A stretch of 64,000 nucleotides of DNA from contig DROS01000090.1 in the NCBI GenBank assembly GCA_011321815.1, positions 1-64,000 of the forward strand, given 5' to 3'. The translations under genes were made by a program, and so were the position numbers. This document shows positions 57,122-64,000 of this stretch, piece by piece. This DNA comes from Gammaproteobacteria bacterium. Lineage in GTDB: Bacteria; Pseudomonadota; Gammaproteobacteria; SZUA-152. Below the pieces are notes generated by a model. The model had not been told where the DNA came from and searched no databases. It was given only the letters and a program-made list of their open reading frames with translations. The number at the start of each line of letters is the position of its first letter. The stretch's first letter is position 1.

Positions 57122-58273
57122 TTATTCCTTTTCACCATGCTGAGAAAAGACCAGAATATAATCTCTGAAATAAAATATTCGATTACGTCGTTTTCCAGTC
57201 AGCTCATATAAAACGCCAAATTTAACAAAATCATTGACCAGCATGGATGCCGTATTTATCTGTATTCCCAGCAGCCTGGCCACCATTTTTATATCAATCG
57301 TCGGCGACTTATACAGTTGTTGCATGAGTATCTGTGCATTTTCCTGCCTGCGTGTACTGAAACGCGGTAAAACTTCACGCTCAAGTTTTTCTTTCAGTTG
57401 CAGAATATCCTTAAATACCTGTATTGAGTTCCGTGCTGTTTCAGCCACGCCATACAAGAAAAAAATCAGCCACTCCTTCAACTCATTACCCACTCTTACT
57501 GCCATTAAGCGGTCAATATATTCCGTTTTATTGCGTTCAAAATAGTCAGATAAATACAAAGCAGGTTTATGCAGCAGACCAAAGTTGGCCAGATAGATCG
57601 CAATCATCAAACGGCCAAGCCTTCCATTACCATCAAGAAACGGGTGTATCGTTTCAAACTGGTAATGGGCAATGGCAATTTTAATCAGGTGCGGCACATG
57701 CACGTCGTCATTGTGAATAAATTTTTCCAGATCACTCATCAGCTCCGGAACTTCGTCACAGTGTGGCGGCACAAAAATCGCATTTTTCAAACTCACCCCA
57801 ATCCAGTTCTGACTGCGGCGAAACTCACCGGGTTGTTTGCTTTCCCCACGCACACCCTGCATTAAAATTTTGTGGGTATTTTTCAACAGGCGATTAGATA
57901 ATGGCAATATCTCCAGTTGCTCAATGGCAGCATTAATTGCCTGAATATAATTTTGCACCTCAAGCCAGTCATCACGTTTTTCCGGATCGATATCCCGCTC
58001 ATCCAATAGCGCCTCTTCCATATTGGTACGGGTGCCCTCAATACGGCTGGACTGCGTCGCTTCCTTGGTGATGTGCATGCGAATAAAAAATGCAACATTG
58101 GGTACCAGTTGAGAAAAGGCATTCAACTCCCCGAGGGCGCGGTCTGCATCACTGAGCAATTGCTGAATTTGTCCATCGGCAATTTCCCAGGCACGATTGA
58201 TTTTCTCTGGCGAAAAGCTTTTGTATTCATACTGCTGCTGGTATTGACCGGCTTTATAGTGACGGATATCCAT
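57122..58273 (-). CDS. Fic family protein (AMP-transferase) with winged-helix tail
   Basis: 383 residues. Complete Fic core motif HPFLDGNGRLGR (H210). The inhibitory motif SSRIEG (S75-x3-E79-G80) lies N-terminal to it, so it is a class II Fic that self-inhibits. The C-terminal ~70 residues (SPTIDIKMVARLLGIQINTASMLVNDFVKFGVL) form a winged-helix DNA-binding domain, so it may regulate its own gene. Fic proteins transfer AMP to target proteins. The upstream region has repeated operator-like sites. Confidence 0.9.
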   Translation of the reverse strand: MDIRHYKAGQYQQQYEYKSFSPEKINRAWEIADGQIQQLLSDADRALGELNAFSQLVPNVAFFIRMHITKEATQSSRIEGTRTNMEEALLDERDIDPEKRDDWLEVQNYIQAINAAIEQLEILPLSNRLLKNTHKILMQGVRGESKQPGEFRRSQNWIGVSLKNAIFVPPHCDEVPELMSDLEKFIHNDDVHVPHLIKIAIAHYQFETIHPFLDGNGRLGRLMIAIYLANFGLLHKPALYLSDYFERNKTEYIDRLMAVRVGNELKEWLIFFLYGVAETARNSIQVFKDILQLKEKLEREVLPRFSTRRQENAQILMQQLYKSPTIDIKMVARLLGIQINTASMLVNDFVKFGVLYELTGKRRNRIFYFRDYILVFSQHGEKE

Positions 58274-58443: not shown

Positions 58444-59150
58444 TCAAATGAGAGTGCTCATTTCCCTTGGCACCGTTATCAGGTAGTTTTTGTCCAGTTT
58501 TCCACCTTTCACGATAGCCCGTTTGCCGCTGCCCAAGTTGACAGCCTCAAGCTCAAGTCGCTTAAACCAAGCAAAGTTATGGCGTTCGGCAAACCATAGG
58601 AACAGGCGCTTGGCCTTCACATGGTGGCAGGCTTTAAGCAGCTTCATCAGCAACTGGGGGCGCAACGATGTGGCGGACTCAAACAACTTGTCCAACACAT
58701 CAAAGTCTGAATTTTGCTTGACCTCGGATGCCAGCTCCAACAGTGCCAGCTCAGGCGTGGCATAGCGCAGTGGCCAGTCCCAGTGCCCAAAGGGCTTCGT
58801 GGTTACAGCCTCGGCCACAGGCGCATCAAACAACTGAGCTTTGTGCAGGGTAAAGCGGTATGACGCATCGAACTTGCTGACCCAGCCCGGCAGCTTATCT
58901 GCGCCGTAGAGGTGTATCTGCTGCACACCCTGCATGGAGAGGTAATGGGCAAAGCCCTGTAGCTCCAGCGCAGATCGTCCACCCACATGGATGGAATAAC
59001 CCAGCTCTTGCAGGGAGTAGGCCACATGCTCCCATTTCAGTGGGGGGCCGGGGCGACGGTAGGGCACCACGGGCTACCGCCAGAACGCAGGTAATAGTCC
59101 ACCAGCGGGCGTTTAAAGCCACGATCTGCCAGCCAGGCAGGGTCAAAGTC
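58444..59150 (-). pseudogene. decayed AbiEi-type antitoxin (type IV toxin-antitoxin)
   Basis: The frame 58444-59070 encodes a typical AbiEi C-terminal part (YSIHVGGRSALELQGFAHYL, KPFGHWDWPLRYATPELALLEL, VNLGSGKRAIVKGG). The preceding part (DFDPAWLADRGFKRPLVDYY, ending LRSGGSP) is in a different frame near 59065-59145, with a stop codon immediately upstream, so both a deletion-type frameshift and loss of the N-terminus are evident. The 34-codon frame after its stop (58336-58440, VDSLYFQSLSLVSGILD) may be the start of a lost AbiEii toxin; that is a weak suggestion. Confidence 0.75.
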
Positions 59151-59429
59151 GCTCTTCTAAGGGTTCTCTTGTAGGCTGAGGCTTCACTGGTTTTAAATGT
59201 TTGTGTTTTGCATAGTAATACTATGCAAAATATGGCATATGCAAACCTCTATTTATATCAAGAAGCTACAATGCTTACGGGACTGGCTTGCTAATAGCCT
59301 ACGCCCGATTCAATGGTTAATAATTTGGCGTATACATTTAAGAAATTAAACCTGGTAAATGACTGTTTGTTTTTATAACCTGGCAAGAACTTAGCCCTGA
59401 TTTTGGTTGGAAAGAACAAAAACTCAAAT

Positions 59430-60419
59430 ATGTTGAAATTTATTGATCTTTTTTGTGGTGGGGGATTTGGCGCGCGTGGCGCTGTACGTGGTGGTGGACA
59501 GCCACTGCTGGCAGTGGATGCCTGGGATCTGGCAACAAAAACATATAGCTCGAACTTTCCAGGTGCCATCATTGTGCAGGAAAAGATCGAGGATATTGAT
59601 CCACACAAATACAAAAATGAACTTTACCCTGATGTATTGCTCACTTCACCTGAATGCACATCACATTCAATTGCTCGTGGTGCCAAACCAGGAAATGAGA
59701 AAAGCAGAGAAACAGCCATTGGCATTTTCCCCTGGATTGACGCATTTAATCCAAGATGGGTGATTGTGGAAAATGTAAATCGAATGAAGAAATGGGAGCG
59801 GCATGAGGAATTGATTGTGACCCTCGAGGAGTATGGTTACACAGTCAGCCAACTTTTATTGGATTCTGCTGAATTCGGCACACCCCAGTCGCGTAAGCGA
59901 CTGTTCCTTATATGTGATCGTTATGGAACAGAAATTACAAAAAAGGAATTACTGGCATCACATCAGAAACAACGAAAATCAGCCAGGGATATTCTTGACC
60001 CTCCAGGAACATATAAAAGCAGTCCCCTATACAAACCTGGGCGTGCAGAAGCAACGATTGAACGTGCGAAAAGGGCAATGCGTACTTTAGGAAAGGGGGT
60101 ACCTTTTTTGATTGTTTATTACGGGTCAGACTATGCTGGCGGCTGGCAGATGCTGGATGCCCCGCTACGCACTGTTACCACAATTGACCGGTTTGGGTTG
60201 GTTACATGGCACAATAAGGAGCCCATGCTGCGCATGTTACAACCGCAAGAACTGCTGCGTGCCATGGGAGCAGGAACTGGGCACAAGCTTCCACATGGTA
60301 CCCGGCGGGACAAGGTTAGACTTTGCGGTAACGGTGTATGTTCTCCGGTTATGGAAGTTATTTTCCGCAAAATCAACAAAATAAATGGAATGAGTGACTG
60401 TCTCCCAGAGGCCGTCTGA
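59430..60419 (+). CDS. DNA (cytosine-5-)-methyltransferase
   Basis: 329 residues from ATG 59430. Motif I FIDLFCGGGFGARG near the start, motif IV as TSPECTSHS with catalytic Cys76 (usual PCQ is replaced by PEC), motif VI VENV (E114), motif VIII QSRKR (Q153, R155, R157), and motif X GNGVCSPVMEV. The target-recognition segment between is short (~YYGSDYAGGWQMLDAPL), so the recognition site is probably short. The gene overlaps the next by TGATG. A TTG frame start at 59403 is possible but lacks a ribosome site. Confidence 0.85.
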   Translation: MLKFIDLFCGGGFGARGAVRGGGQPLLAVDAWDLATKTYSSNFPGAIIVQEKIEDIDPHKYKNELYPDVLLTSPECTSHSIARGAKPGNEKSRETAIGIFPWIDAFNPRWVIVENVNRMKKWERHEELIVTLEEYGYTVSQLLLDSAEFGTPQSRKRLFLICDRYGTEITKKELLASHQKQRKSARDILDPPGTYKSSPLYKPGRAEATIERAKRAMRTLGKGVPFLIVYYGSDYAGGWQMLDAPLRTVTTIDRFGLVTWHNKEPMLRMLQPQELLRAMGAGTGHKLPHGTRRDKVRLCGNGVCSPVMEVIFRKINKINGMSDCLPEAV

Positions 60420-60709
60420 TGACAGACTGTAACAATCTGATTATTGACCGGGTTTATCGCGGGTCACGCCATGGAAATGCTGCTGATGATCCACTTCCAC
60501 AGCTTGTCGGGGTCTCTGGTGGGGGCGGTTTTCGTTATATCGGGGATCGAACAGCTCTCAACAAGCTGCACCTGATTACCCTGAAATCCAACTTTAATGA
60601 CCCGGACTGGCCCGATCACCTGGATCATGAAACCGGGACCAAGTTGAGAAATGGCTCACCAGTATTGTCTAGGTGTCTGCCGTTTGAAATGCTTGTAACA
60701 CGCACTTGA
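60419..60709 (+). pseudogene. N-terminal fragment like an AspBHI-type endonuclease
   Basis: 96 residues. DRVYRGSRHGNAADDPLPQL, GVSGGGGFRYIGDR and NFNDPDWPDHLDHETGTK match, from memory of the family, the start of AspBHI-like endonuclease N-terminal domains (several hundred residues are normal); identity then breaks off. ATG overlaps the methyltransferase stop (TGATG). The last ~40 bases overlap the convergent vsr gene. Probably the remainder of a deleted restriction gene, or a shortened accessory peptide. Confidence in the family is moderate. Confidence 0.5.
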
Positions 60710-61082
60710 CACATCCATGCAGGTCATTTTTGACTTCGTGTTCCCAGAAGCGAAGTACACGCCAATCTTCCTGTTCAAGCAAACGATTTACCTCCTTGTC
60801 CCGTGCCATGTTTTTCGAGAGCTTTTTTTCCCAGAAAGCCCGGTTTGTTGCGGGCATCTGGCAATGTTCAGGACATACATGCCAAAAACAGCCATCCACA
60901 AAAATGGCAAGTCTGCGCCCTGGGAAAACAATATCCGGTCGACCGGGTAGTTTGTTCTTCAGCCGGTAACGCAGCCCAGTTTCCCAAAGTGCCTTGCGTA
61001 AAAGAACCTCTGGTTTTGTATTTTTTCCCCGTATCCGGGACATGCAATAACTGCGTTGAGAAGGGTTCAGAATATCGATCAC
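60669..61082 (-). CDS. vsr: very short patch repair endonuclease (Vsr)
   Basis: 137 residues from GTG 61082. RSYCMSRIRGKNTKPEVLLR, YRLKNKLPGRPDIVFPGRRL with the catalytic Asp (D50), and FVDGCFWHVCPEHC with the zinc-like ligands. Vsr nicks at T:G mismatches that come from deamination of 5-methylcytosine, so it matches the convergent cytosine methyltransferase. Third gene of the GHKL kinase - response regulator - vsr run, 8 bp after the regulator's stop. Confidence 0.9.
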   Translation of the reverse strand: MIDILNPSQRSYCMSRIRGKNTKPEVLLRKALWETGLRYRLKNKLPGRPDIVFPGRRLAIFVDGCFWHVCPEHCQMPATNRAFWEKKLSKNMARDKEVNRLLEQEDWRVLRFWEHEVKNDLHGCVKCVLQAFQTADT

Positions 61083-61090
61083 AGTAATAT

Positions 61091-62203
61091 TCAGTTCTCC
61101 GGTGAAAGAAGCCCCTTGTACTTATTTAGCAATTCTGCTTTATCCATATCAGGCTGTCCCTGGCGACCAAAATACGCAGAAAATCTTGACTGGATATCTT
61201 TCAGAAACGGACTGGATATTGTAGCCAGACGATTAAATTCTGAAAATTCTTTGAAATCGACTGTATGCAAATTTTGCAAATCAACTACCGCAGCAAACAG
61301 CTCTTTGTACCCAGGAATAAAAATATATTTTTCCCTTTGGCCTTTTATTATTTTGTCAAGAGCAGATTTTTTTGATTTTGAACTATCATCATTGGCAAAG
61401 ATTCCATGGTTAACGAAAGATTCCCGATTGACTTTGATAAGTGGCGCCAGTGTTATTCTGGCAGCATTTATTTTTGGTGCGTTATTATCAATTCCTCGTA
61501 CAGCTACATCACAAGGCGGTGACAAGACAATAAACCTACCCCCGTCTCGCTCAACAATATCACCTGTCGCGATATGCTCCCGAATAGTTGGTTTTATATA
61601 GAATTCTGCCTCATGATAATACCTTTGTTTACCATCAGGAATATCAAGATACTCCGCGAGGTGGCTGACCGTATACCGTAACAGTGTCCGCTCGGACTCT
61701 TCTTCTTTTGATGTCCATACATCAAAAGAAGAAGCAAGATGCTTCCAGAAGATTTCACCCAGTCTCTCTTCAATTTGCCCACGACCGCCAAGAATTCGGG
61801 TGATACCCGTTAAATAAATTTTTACAAGTTTTTCAAAGATTTCATTGTTTGGTTTTCCCCTGTCATGAAAATCCAGAAACTCAGATTTTTTACTCCTGAT
61901 ACCTTCGTCTAAATTCCCGAGGTTTCCTGACACCACATAAACGGGAAATCTGTGGCGTTCAATAATTTCAGACAACACGTCATTTCCAGACGCATCTTGC
62001 GGATTCCCCGGCACAAGATTCAAATCGACAATTGCACCATCAAAATTATTCGATAAAAGTGCTTCCTTGGCATTGCCAGCCGACTTTTTGCGTTCCAACT
62101 CGATCTTCAAGTTATCGTTGCTTATTTCGTCAGCGGCATCTTCATATGCCTCATACTGATCATCATTATCCTCTACTATAAGAATCCTAATGGTCTTGCT
62201 CAT
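61091..62203 (-). CDS. response regulator with an unrecognised C-terminal domain
   Basis: 370 residues. Receiver domain with acidic pair (E11, D12), phosphoacceptor D60 (GAIVDLNLVP) and the switch Ser in VYVVSGN. Residues ~140-370 have no DNA-binding signature I know. They contain SPPCDV near residue 228, HEAEFYIKPTIREHIATGD and EKYIFIPGYKELFAAVVDLQ. Its ATG overlaps the kinase stop (TAATG), so the two are a coupled pair. Composition is AT-rich, unlike the core. I do not know the output. Confidence 0.75.
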   Translation of the reverse strand: MSKTIRILIVEDNDDQYEAYEDAADEISNDNLKIELERKKSAGNAKEALLSNNFDGAIVDLNLVPGNPQDASGNDVLSEIIERHRFPVYVVSGNLGNLDEGIRSKKSEFLDFHDRGKPNNEIFEKLVKIYLTGITRILGGRGQIEERLGEIFWKHLASSFDVWTSKEEESERTLLRYTVSHLAEYLDIPDGKQRYYHEAEFYIKPTIREHIATGDIVERDGGRFIVLSPPCDVAVRGIDNNAPKINAARITLAPLIKVNRESFVNHGIFANDDSSKSKKSALDKIIKGQREKYIFIPGYKELFAAVVDLQNLHTVDFKEFSEFNRLATISSPFLKDIQSRFSAYFGRQGQPDMDKAELLNKYKGLLSPEN

Positions 62204-64000
62204 TATTTATTATCCTCAAAGAGGATCTCGAACATAGCACCATGCTCGGAATGTTTTGCCTCAATTCTTCCACCAATTCTGCTCATGGCCTCACCAGCTA
62301 ATGCCAGCCCAAGTCCTGTCCCGTCGGGTTTCATACTGTATCCAGGTTCAAACATCAGACTTAGGTTGTCCCCTTGGAAGCCTGGACCGTTATCTTTATA
62401 CTCCACGATCAATTGTGAATTCTCCTTATAGATAGATATATCAATCTTTCTTATGCCATCTCGGGCATGACTAAGCCAGTAAACACTGTTTTCAATCAGG
62501 TTGGAGAATACAGTTATTAAGTCCATCTCATTGGCAGTAACTGATGCAGTAGTCATGTCAAAATGTATCTCACGCGATATGCTAAGAGCCTGCATTTCAG
62601 AGGAAAAAATACCCAATGTATTTTCGATAATACTATTAAGATCAAACTTACGTTTTGGTGATCGTCGAGTCCGAGCAAGCGGCTCAATCTTCTTAAACAA
62701 ATAGGATAAGCCTTTGGAATGAGACACCACCTTTCCGCTGCGATCCTCTAGTTTTTTTTCAAGTTCAGAATCTACGTGCGTGGAAAGTTGCTTTGCCCAC
62801 TTAATAACTCTAGGAACGGTTTCTGAAATATATTTGATATGCTTCCTTCCCTCATGAAGAAGCACATGAGTAATTTTTCCGAGCGTGGCCTGCCCTTGAT
62901 ATATAGCAATGGTATCCCGTATTTTTTTTGCTACATGGGATTTTTTCTGTTTCTCACTCTCAAGAACTTGGTCGACAATACTATCAACGGTATCCCTCTG
63001 TTTACGTGGTATACCTATTTCATCAAGCTCATGTGAGATTTTCTTCCTGGCACTGTCAAAATCAAATAACAGATTTATTTCATCATCAAGGCTTCTGTTT
63101 CGCCCACCCTTTAATGCCTTCTGACGATATTTGACTCGCCTGACTTCCATCTCGTTAATTGTGCGAGAAATAACAGTTAACAAACCAAAGTAGGCTTTGT
63201 TTTCCATCAAACCATCCCGGGCACTTTTCTCGGTAAGACCAGACTCTTCCTCAGAACGAACATAAACAAACCCGATAATCTGATTGTGGCCTATCTTGTA
63301 TGATGGGTTTTGAACTCTTTTCTTATCCAAATCGAGCCAGTCAAATGACTGCTCACCGTATGGCCTGATTCGGAACTGCTCCCGATATACTCCAACACCA
63401 TAATATTCATCAAGAATGCGCCTAGCTTCCAGCTTTCCTACGTATTCACCTGTATCCGGATCCTTCAAGCCTCTCTTGATGATGTTTTCAATGCTATCAG
63501 GATCACGGTCATATACACGAAGATCAATATATACTTCTCCCGGGTAGCGGAGAGAGTTCTCTGCATCAAGTGTTATCTTCAGCGTCAGTTCTTCTGGTGG
63601 CAGACCTGGAATATTCTGATTTTCGAATCTCAAATTTGCCTTGCCGCTTTCATCGATGGTGCCGGATATTTTATAGTCATATAGGTCAAGAACCGGGAAT
63701 GGTCGAATATCTATTTCCCTGCTCGAATATTCCTCGACAGGAAATTGTTCAAAAATCAACTTGATATCGAAAGAGTCATGGTTGATTTCATATCCTTGCT
63801 CCGATGCTGCCTTATAAACCTCTTCCGGTGAAATCAAGCTTCGTAGCTCCACAAAAAGCTTATGTAGCTGCTTGGATGTCCAGATTTCCCGGATATGACC
63901 AGATGAAACTTCATCTTTTTCTATTTCTATGATTGTTCCGTTATCTTTCCCGGTATCCTCAATCGAAACATCCAATTCTAACTGGTCAAGGTATTCAACA
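62203..64000 (-). CDS. GHKL ATPase / histidine kinase (N-terminus beyond window edge)
   Basis: At least 598 residues are in the window and the frame stays open to the edge (VEYLDQLELDVSIEDT...), so the start lies outside. The first part, with GTIIEIEKDEVSSGHIREIW and FVELRSLISP, resembles the end of a paraMORC/MutL-type GHKL ATPase. The C-terminal part is a full histidine kinase: H-box-like LLHEGRKHIKYI, N-box SNLIENSVYW, G1 YKDNGPGFQG, G2 GTGLGLALAGEAMSRIGG. No membrane helix is seen, so it is a soluble sensor. Its stop overlaps the response regulator start. Confidence 0.75.
   Translation of the reverse strand, partial: VEYLDQLELDVSIEDTGKDNGTIIEIEKDEVSSGHIREIWTSKQLHKLFVELRSLISPEEVYKAASEQGYEINHDSFDIKLIFEQFPVEEYSSREIDIRPFPVLDLYDYKISGTIDESGKANLRFENQNIPGLPPEELTLKITLDAENSLRYPGEVYIDLRVYDRDPDSIENIIKRGLKDPDTGEYVGKLEARRILDEYYGVGVYREQFRIRPYGEQSFDWLDLDKKRVQNPSYKIGHNQIIGFVYVRSEEESGLTEKSARDGLMENKAYFGLLTVISRTINEMEVRRVKYRQKALKGGRNRSLDDEINLLFDFDSARKKISHELDEIGIPRKQRDTVDSIVDQVLESEKQKKSHVAKKIRDTIAIYQGQATLGKITHVLLHEGRKHIKYISETVPRVIKWAKQLSTHVDSELEKKLEDRSGKVVSHSKGLSYLFKKIEPLARTRRSPKRKFDLNSIIENTLGIFSSEMQALSISREIHFDMTTASVTANEMDLITVFSNLIENSVYWLSHARDGIRKIDISIYKENSQLIVEYKDNGPGFQGDNLSLMFEPGYSMKPDGTGLGLALAGEAMSRIGGRIEAKHSEHGAMFEILFEDNK

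What the first reader, a model, noticed from the sequence alone, without database searches (positions are those of the whole stretch)
59430..64000. Soluble GHKL histidine kinase, novel response regulator and Vsr facing a cytosine methyltransferase
On the minus strand three tightly packed genes (TAATG overlap, then 8 bp) encode a soluble GHKL ATPase that carries a complete histidine kinase end, a receiver-domain protein, and Vsr. Facing them are a 5mC methyltransferase and a fused or broken restriction fragment. GHKL ATPases of the MORC/paraMORC type are known partners of restriction-modification and Vsr genes. What is unusual is that the ATPase looks like a true phosphodonor with H, N and G boxes, and is paired with a phosphorylatable regulator. 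It suggests a restriction or repair response switched by a phosphorelay. AT-rich composition marks the island as transferred.
Basis: partly seen in the sequence, partly recalled or inferred. Interest (0 to 1): 0.88.

Follow-up and report, generated by a model that had tools for sequence, protein, structure and literature searches.

The report
DNA-methylation-linked two-component phosphorelay cassette
Next to a DNA-marking enzyme and its repair partner, this bacterium carries a switch that looks built to read DNA and pass a phosphate to a toxin-like partner; similar cassettes occur across bacteria and some archaea, often with no DNA-cutting enzyme identified nearby, which suggests a form of DNA self/non-self defence that works by signalling.

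Summary
Extending the contig past 64000 completes the kinase (740 aa): a MORC/MutL-like GHKL+S5 ATPase fused to a full histidine kinase, followed by a receiver protein, Vsr and a facing C5-methyltransferase (MTase). The facing 'restriction fragment' is a truncated AspBHI-type nuclease.

The kind is known: Bellieny-Rabelo 2021 (PMC8011034) described HATPase_c_3+HEF_HK+HATPase_c / Response_reg_2 pairs beside MTases and Vsr. This pair is a sister branch that neither Pfam model detects.

New here:
(1) Kinase and regulator are adjacent in 66 of 66 loci, in bacteria and archaea. Histidine and receiver aspartate are invariant (55/55, 54/54). Of 36 loci with full flanks, 31 have a MTase and 20 have Vsr within 4 kb.
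(2) The regulator carries an unnamed output domain with invariant Cys, predicted to have a PemK/MazF-like fold; structure-only evidence, no sequence support.
(3) Three kinases carry a fused EcoRII-N DNA-reading domain, one beside a Dcm-type MTase and Vsr.
(4) The cassette persists where the nuclease is broken or absent.

Best reading: a DNA-reading phosphorelay that fires a toxin-like output when MTase-marked sites are unmarked. The phosphorelay is well supported; trigger and output activity are inferred.

The parts
62203..64000 (-). Kinase (HK), residues ~142-740 of 740; gene continues to contig position 64425 (L002 5203-7425). S5-like middle region, DHp helices with His524 in LHEGR (codon 62856-62854), CA domain with N, G1, F and G2 boxes (residues 632-736).
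61091..62203 (-). Receiver/regulator protein (RR), 370 aa: REC domain (~3-131; Asp60 at codon 62026-62024), helical linker, C-terminal barrel domain.
61151..61618 (-). C-terminal output domain of the regulator (residues 196-351): no Pfam family; invariant Cys231, near-invariant Asp232; PemK/MazF-like fold suggested by structure search only.
60669..61082 (-). Vsr mismatch endonuclease, 137 aa
   Evidence: Pfam Vsr E 1.2e-29; TIGR00632 over cut-off
59430..60419 (+). C5-cytosine DNA methyltransferase, 329 aa from ATG 59430 (upstream TTG at 59403)
   Evidence: Pfam DNA_methylase E 1.4e-35; best PADLOC model DrmMII E 1.5e-69
60419..60709 (+). Truncated AspBHI-type restriction gene; homologous part 60428-60637
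   Evidence: RE_AspBHI_N E 8.8e-12; tblastn with intact relatives

Best explanation
This is a mobile cassette that couples a DNA self-mark to a signalling response. Shown or strongly supported: the kinase joins a MORC/MutL-type ATPase to a complete histidine kinase, and is built with a cognate receiver protein as one conserved unit beside a C5-MTase and usually Vsr. Inferred: the MTase marks the host's sites and Vsr repairs the deamination damage that 5mC causes. The ATP-driven N-terminal module engages DNA; when target sites are unmarked (incoming phage or plasmid DNA, or loss of the MTase), ATP-dependent rearrangement triggers autophosphorylation of His524, the phosphate passes to Asp60, and the phosphorylated regulator releases a toxin-like PemK/MazF-fold output that stops growth or blocks the invader. 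A nuclease is an optional partner.
For: Kinase: GHKL-1, H, N, G1, F and G2 motif residues invariant in 55/55 (either the GHKL-1 or the N-box stretch of a given row was a search seed, but H520, D64, G66, G68, G100, K102, G676, G700 and G702 were not). Fold: HK853 kinases for the C half; MORC2, MORC3, SMCHD1 and a MutL-family protein for the N half. Regulator: Asp60 54/54, acidic pair, Ser/Thr92 54/54, Lys/Arg115 54/54; REC fold. Unit: 66/66 adjacent, 42 overlapping. Context: MTase 31/36, Vsr 20/36. DNA reading: EcoRII-N fused to three kinases at separate places in the tree; in Duganella guangzhouensis (L040) with an MTase over the PRK10458 (Dcm) cut-off, Vsr and an EcoRII-C gene; G353 has MTase-Vsr-EcoRII facing HK-RR. 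Nuclease optional: truncated here, frameshifted in L022, no homologue found in L015, L021 or L024; cassettes with non-R-M flanking genes in L006, L017, L021, L034. Output: PemK/MazF-family hits for the regulator model, e.g. E 2.4e-3, prob 1.00, TM 0.63 by target length.
Against: No experiment. The PemK/MazF similarity has no sequence support, rests on predicted viral structures with modest E-values, and the conserved Arg that I recall for MazF enzymes is not conserved, so activity cannot be inferred. Most kinases, this one included, have no recognisable sequence-specific DNA-binding domain. Intact nucleases do occur in part of the family, so regulation of an R-M system is not excluded. Undetected nucleases may exist in the loci called nuclease-free.
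Confidence: 0.45

Rival explanations
1. Regulatory role: the kinase/regulator pair monitors DNA methylation state or damage and tunes expression or activity of the neighbouring MTase, Vsr and (where present) nuclease, protecting the host from its own R-M system rather than attacking invaders.
For: Varied nucleases accompany the pair: AspBHI-type, EcoRII-C, EcoRII, type I. The 2021 paper proposes signalling that controls R-M.
Against: The output domain matches no DNA-binding family; the pair persists where the nuclease is broken or not found, leaving little to regulate except the MTase.
Confidence: 0.3
2. DNA-repair or maintenance role: the MORC/MutL-like ATPase works with Vsr, as MutL does in very-short-patch repair, and the phosphorelay signals damage at 5mC sites.
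For: MutL-family fold hit; Vsr within 4 kb in 20 of 36 loci.
Against: Vsr is absent from many cassettes that keep HK, RR and MTase (L005, L006, L017, L018); sporadic distribution (1 of 12 genomes of the genus) is unlike housekeeping repair.
Confidence: 0.12
3. Passenger: an ordinary cytoplasmic two-component system carried along in a defence island.
For: Defence-type genes nearby in the window: Fic, AbiEi, orphan HsdM, Cas6.
Against: MTase in 31 of 36 full-flank loci across unrelated hosts; MORC-like N-terminus and EcoRII-N fusions.
Confidence: 0.05

Closest known systems
HEF_HK / Response_reg_2 two-component-like system (PF19191/PF19192; Bellieny-Rabelo et al. 2021, PMC8011034)
   Same: HATPase_c_3 + DHp-like + HATPase_c kinase, adjacent receiver gene, C5-MTase and Vsr neighbours; homologous DHp+CA region (hhalign prob 99.6%); one Response_reg_2 protein hits this family's C-terminal domain HMM (L020, E 9e-6).
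   Different: Neither Pfam model matches any of 55 kinases or 54 regulators at E 0.01; H-box LHEGR rather than HHEF in the L019 example; many PF19191 hits lie in frames of ~1000 aa against ~740 here; EcoRII-N fusions and the output-domain fold are not described in the text I read.
MORC / paraMORC ATPases of restriction-modification operons (Iyer et al. 2008, PMC2292703)
   Same: N-terminal GHKL plus S5-like module; R-M, MTase and Vsr neighbourhood.
   Different: Carries a full histidine kinase end and a receiver partner; 'receiver' does not occur in that paper. Not assigned to paraMORC1-5.
VcSduA / type I-D Shedu, a GHKL ATPase with DUF4263 nuclease (PMC12137116)
   Same: GHKL ATPase as presumed controller of an anti-phage effector.
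   Different: There the effector is a fused PD-(D/E)xK nuclease; here a separate receiver protein, no nuclease domain.
Detocs (two-component-like anti-phage system; own knowledge)
   Same: Kinase-to-receiver phosphorelay driving an effector.
   Different: No MORC module, MTase or Vsr as far as I recall; not tested here.
Dcm/Vsr and EcoRII R-M systems
   Same: MTase + Vsr pair, EcoRII-N and EcoRII-C parts in some relatives.
   Different: Classical systems lack the kinase and regulator; here the nuclease is truncated.

Membership tests
Two-component system (HK + RR) | Kinase H, N, G1, F and G2 boxes; receiver acidic pair, Asp, Ser/Thr, Lys | tested here: met
   Invariant or nearly so in 55 HKs / 54 RRs; own receiver has Arg at the Lys position; folds of both
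Two-component system (HK + RR) | Phosphotransfer His to Asp | not testable with these tools
   needs biochemistry
HEF_HK / Response_reg_2 | Match to PF19191 and PF19192 | tested here: not met
HEF_HK / Response_reg_2 | HATPase_c_3 + HATPase_c architecture with adjacent receiver gene, C5-MTase/Vsr context | tested here: met
HEF_HK / Response_reg_2 | Homology of regulator C-terminal part | tested here: inconclusive
   L020 protein hits the HMM at 9e-6; L019 protein does not
MORC / paraMORC | N-terminal GHKL with ATPase motifs followed by S5 domain | tested here: met
   motifs 55/55; fold match to MORC2/MORC3/SMCHD1/MutL-family over ~440-500 columns; test made on the 70%-identical Thiobius protein
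MORC / paraMORC | Membership of a named paraMORC1-5 family | not tested
   reference sequences not available here
PemK/MazF toxins | Fold | tested here: inconclusive
   Foldseek BFVD: two hits at E 2.0-2.4e-3, prob 0.98-1.00, three weaker; PDB top 50 all REC-led
PemK/MazF toxins | Sequence-profile match to PF02452 | tested here: not met
PemK/MazF toxins | Conserved Arg of the RPxxVLS strand (recalled) | tested here: not met
   position not conserved; Cys-Asp instead
Type II restriction-modification | Intact cognate endonuclease | tested here: not met
   truncated ORF 60419-60709

The most novel reading that the evidence does not exclude
The phosphorelay replaces the restriction enzyme: a kinase that reads the same site class that the cassette's MTase marks fires a toxin-fold response regulator when the mark is missing, i.e. 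restriction by signalling instead of by cutting.
Probability: 0.3. Interest if true: 0.88.

Novelty: new variant of a known kind. Interest (0 to 1): 0.62.

Why it matters
Restriction-modification is understood as direct reading and cutting. A widespread cassette that keeps the self-mark and its repair enzyme but puts a kinase and a toxin-like response regulator in the place of the nuclease would be a different logic for DNA self/non-self discrimination, and would give a bacterial MORC-like ATPase a concrete, testable job. The EcoRII-N kinase fusions supply a ready hypothesis for the trigger (unmethylated CCWGG-type sites).

Tried and rejected
A profile of nine regulators was too divergent as a search seed; the kinase alignment was used instead. 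MazF/PemK link by sequence: hhalign with 8 and with 47 PemK sequences gave p 0.12 and 0.035 over the last strands and helix, no better than controls (REC versus PemK p 0.01); rejected as sequence evidence. The output-domain profile against PDB sequences and Pfam: nothing. A scan for more EcoRII-N kinase fusions in 399 genomes of the phylum found none; mostly frames of EcoRII length (404-435 aa) and some shorter or divergent ones, one of them (G353) with HK-RR adjacent. L044's long kinase N-terminus overlaps the antisense MTase and was discarded as a false extension. PADLOC PDC-M60C hit on the regulator covers only residues 5-75. Literature: no paper found on receiver + MazF proteins or EcoRII-N kinases in the open library; this does not cover subscription journals.

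Full report
OBSERVATION. The window is contig C90, bases 1-64000, of a 3.58-Mb draft genome; the contig is 86487 bases long. Beyond 64000 the kinase gains its first ~142 residues, 740 aa in all. Pfam places HATPase_c_3 at 32-151 and HATPase_c at 632-736; the receiver protein gives only a sub-threshold Response_reg hit; Vsr and DNA_methylase are clear. The small ORF carries the first part of an AspBHI-type restriction enzyme and then ends against the Vsr gene. Sixty bases upstream of the kinase, outside the window, lies an HsdM gene with no HsdS or HsdR among the ORFs listed in the next 10 kb.

THE KINASE. Nine relatives (34-70% identity) and then 55 show all GHKL motifs of the N-terminal ATPase and the H, N, G1, F and G2 boxes. 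Caution: relatives were found with two peptide patterns, ELxKNxYD and NxxxNSxxW, so each row was chosen for one of those two stretches; the His, the DxGxG and GxKGxG motifs of the first ATPase and the G1/G2 glycines were not seeds and are still invariant. The AlphaFold model (made on the 70%-identical Candidatus Thiobius protein, pLDDT 85.8) matches HK853-type kinases with its C-terminal half and MORC2, MORC3, SMCHD1 and a MutL-family DNA-repair protein over ~440-500 columns. Three relatives carry an extra N-terminal EcoRII-N domain, the DNA-reading part of the EcoRII restriction enzyme: L037 (E 2.8e-13), L080 (2.8e-16) and, weakly by Pfam but clearly by BLAST to L037 (E 5e-8), L040. They sit in separate parts of the tree. 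In L040 the MTase passes the curated cut-off of the PRK10458 subfamily (DNA cytosine methylase; I read this as Dcm), Vsr is present, and a separate gene has the EcoRII-C nuclease domain. That the kinase and the MTase read the same site class there is inference from family membership.

THE REGULATOR. Asp60 is invariant in 54, with the acidic pair, Ser/Thr92 and Lys/Arg115 (own: Arg). The own model has pLDDT 93.7. PDB matches are led by receivers. The C-terminal ~155 residues form a domain with no Pfam match, with Cys231 invariant and the motif TPxCD. From the sequence pattern I suspected a PemK/MazF-type barrel before the viral-library search; that search then returned two PemK/MazF-family proteins (E 2.0e-3 and 2.4e-3, probability 0.98 and 1.00, TM 0.63 by target length for the 108-residue one) and three weaker ones. 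Sequence profiles do not support it. I treat it as a fold hint, not an activity.

THE UNIT AND ITS SURROUNDINGS. The regulator follows the kinase at -80 to +39 nt in 66 of 66 loci, 42 overlapping (the most negative values partly reflect upstream start choice). Of 36 loci with 4 kb on both sides, 31 have a C5-MTase and 20 Vsr within 4 kb. Hosts span Pseudomonadota, Bacteroidota, Actinomycetota, Bacillota, Chloroflexota, Verrucomicrobiota, Nitrospirota and archaea; conjugative Campylobacter plasmids carry it. No control rate for random loci was computed here; the 2021 study did this for the sister family.

THE NUCLEASE. In the six-member clade around the window, Marinobacter (L023) has an intact AspBHI-type gene next to its MTase, Microbulbifer (L022) a frameshifted one, the window a truncated one, and L015, L021 and L024 give no hit. 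If the MTase-nuclease pair is ancestral, as its shared position suggests, at least two independent losses occurred while kinase, regulator and MTase were kept. Cassettes flanked by genes unrelated to R-M: L021 (Cu-oxidase_4; a HisKA_3 sensor), L006 (AraC-type; O-methyltransferase), L017 (amino-acid kinase; Slam), L034 (Hsp20; resolvase). At the other end, G353 has MTase-Vsr-EcoRII facing HK-RR. So the pair joins varied R-M sets and also stands without a recognised nuclease.

MOBILITY. The regulator is found in the window genome and in none of 11 other genomes of its genus. In Microbulbifer the cassette lies behind an intact gyrB, and a 136-aa, 97% identical copy of the gyrB end lies beyond it, as after an insertion.

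KNOWN OR NEW. The layout was published in 2021 as HEF_HK/Response_reg_2. The kinases here share the DHp+CA region with that family but match neither Pfam model, and the H-box reads LHEGR instead of HHEF. One Response_reg_2 protein hits the output-domain HMM (E 9e-6), so the two are probably branches of one larger family. Hence 'new variant of a known kind'.

MECHANISM. Supported: a phosphorelay, MORC-like ATP-driven input, link to 5mC. Inferred: input is DNA lacking the cassette's mark; output is a toxin-like domain. The main alternative is regulation of the neighbouring R-M genes. The scores reflect strong anatomy, no experiment, and a prior publication on the sister family.

Noticed in passing
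L022 5351-7771 and 14493-14900: In Microbulbifer thermotolerans the cassette lies between an intact gyrB and a 97%-identical 136-aa copy of the gyrB 3' end: apparent insertion at gyrB. In Duganella margarita (L066) gyrB also lies near the cassette.
   Followed up: partly
contig C90 64485-66455 (L002 7485-9455): Orphan HsdM 60 bp upstream of the kinase, same strand, no HsdS/HsdR seen in the next 10 kb; its middle holds an in-frame stretch (HSGEDRNPE / VIPAKTETQ in another frame) that looks like a dispersed repeat insertion.
   Followed up: no
contig C90 67194-67889 (L002 10194-10889): Cas6/Cmx6 (type I-MYXAN) gene with no other cas gene evident among the neighbouring ORFs listed.
   Followed up: no
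window 58444-59070 and 57122-58273: AbiEi-type antitoxin matching only the end of its N-terminal domain (possibly truncated), no AbiEii partner seen, next to a Fic/DOC protein.
   Followed up: no
L078 3090-10960; L090 1343-7418: In a sister kinase branch the receiver gene is replaced by a very large helicase directly downstream (with an MrfA Zn-binding domain in L078).
   Followed up: partly
L051, L097: The kinase-regulator pair with an MTase occurs in contigs binned as Methanoregulaceae and Heimdallarchaeota archaea.
   Followed up: no
L002 15160-17683: Two adjacent genes that look like DsrA/DsrB sulfite reductase subunits followed by small Tus-like genes (read by eye), suggesting a sulfur-oxidising host.
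   Followed up: no
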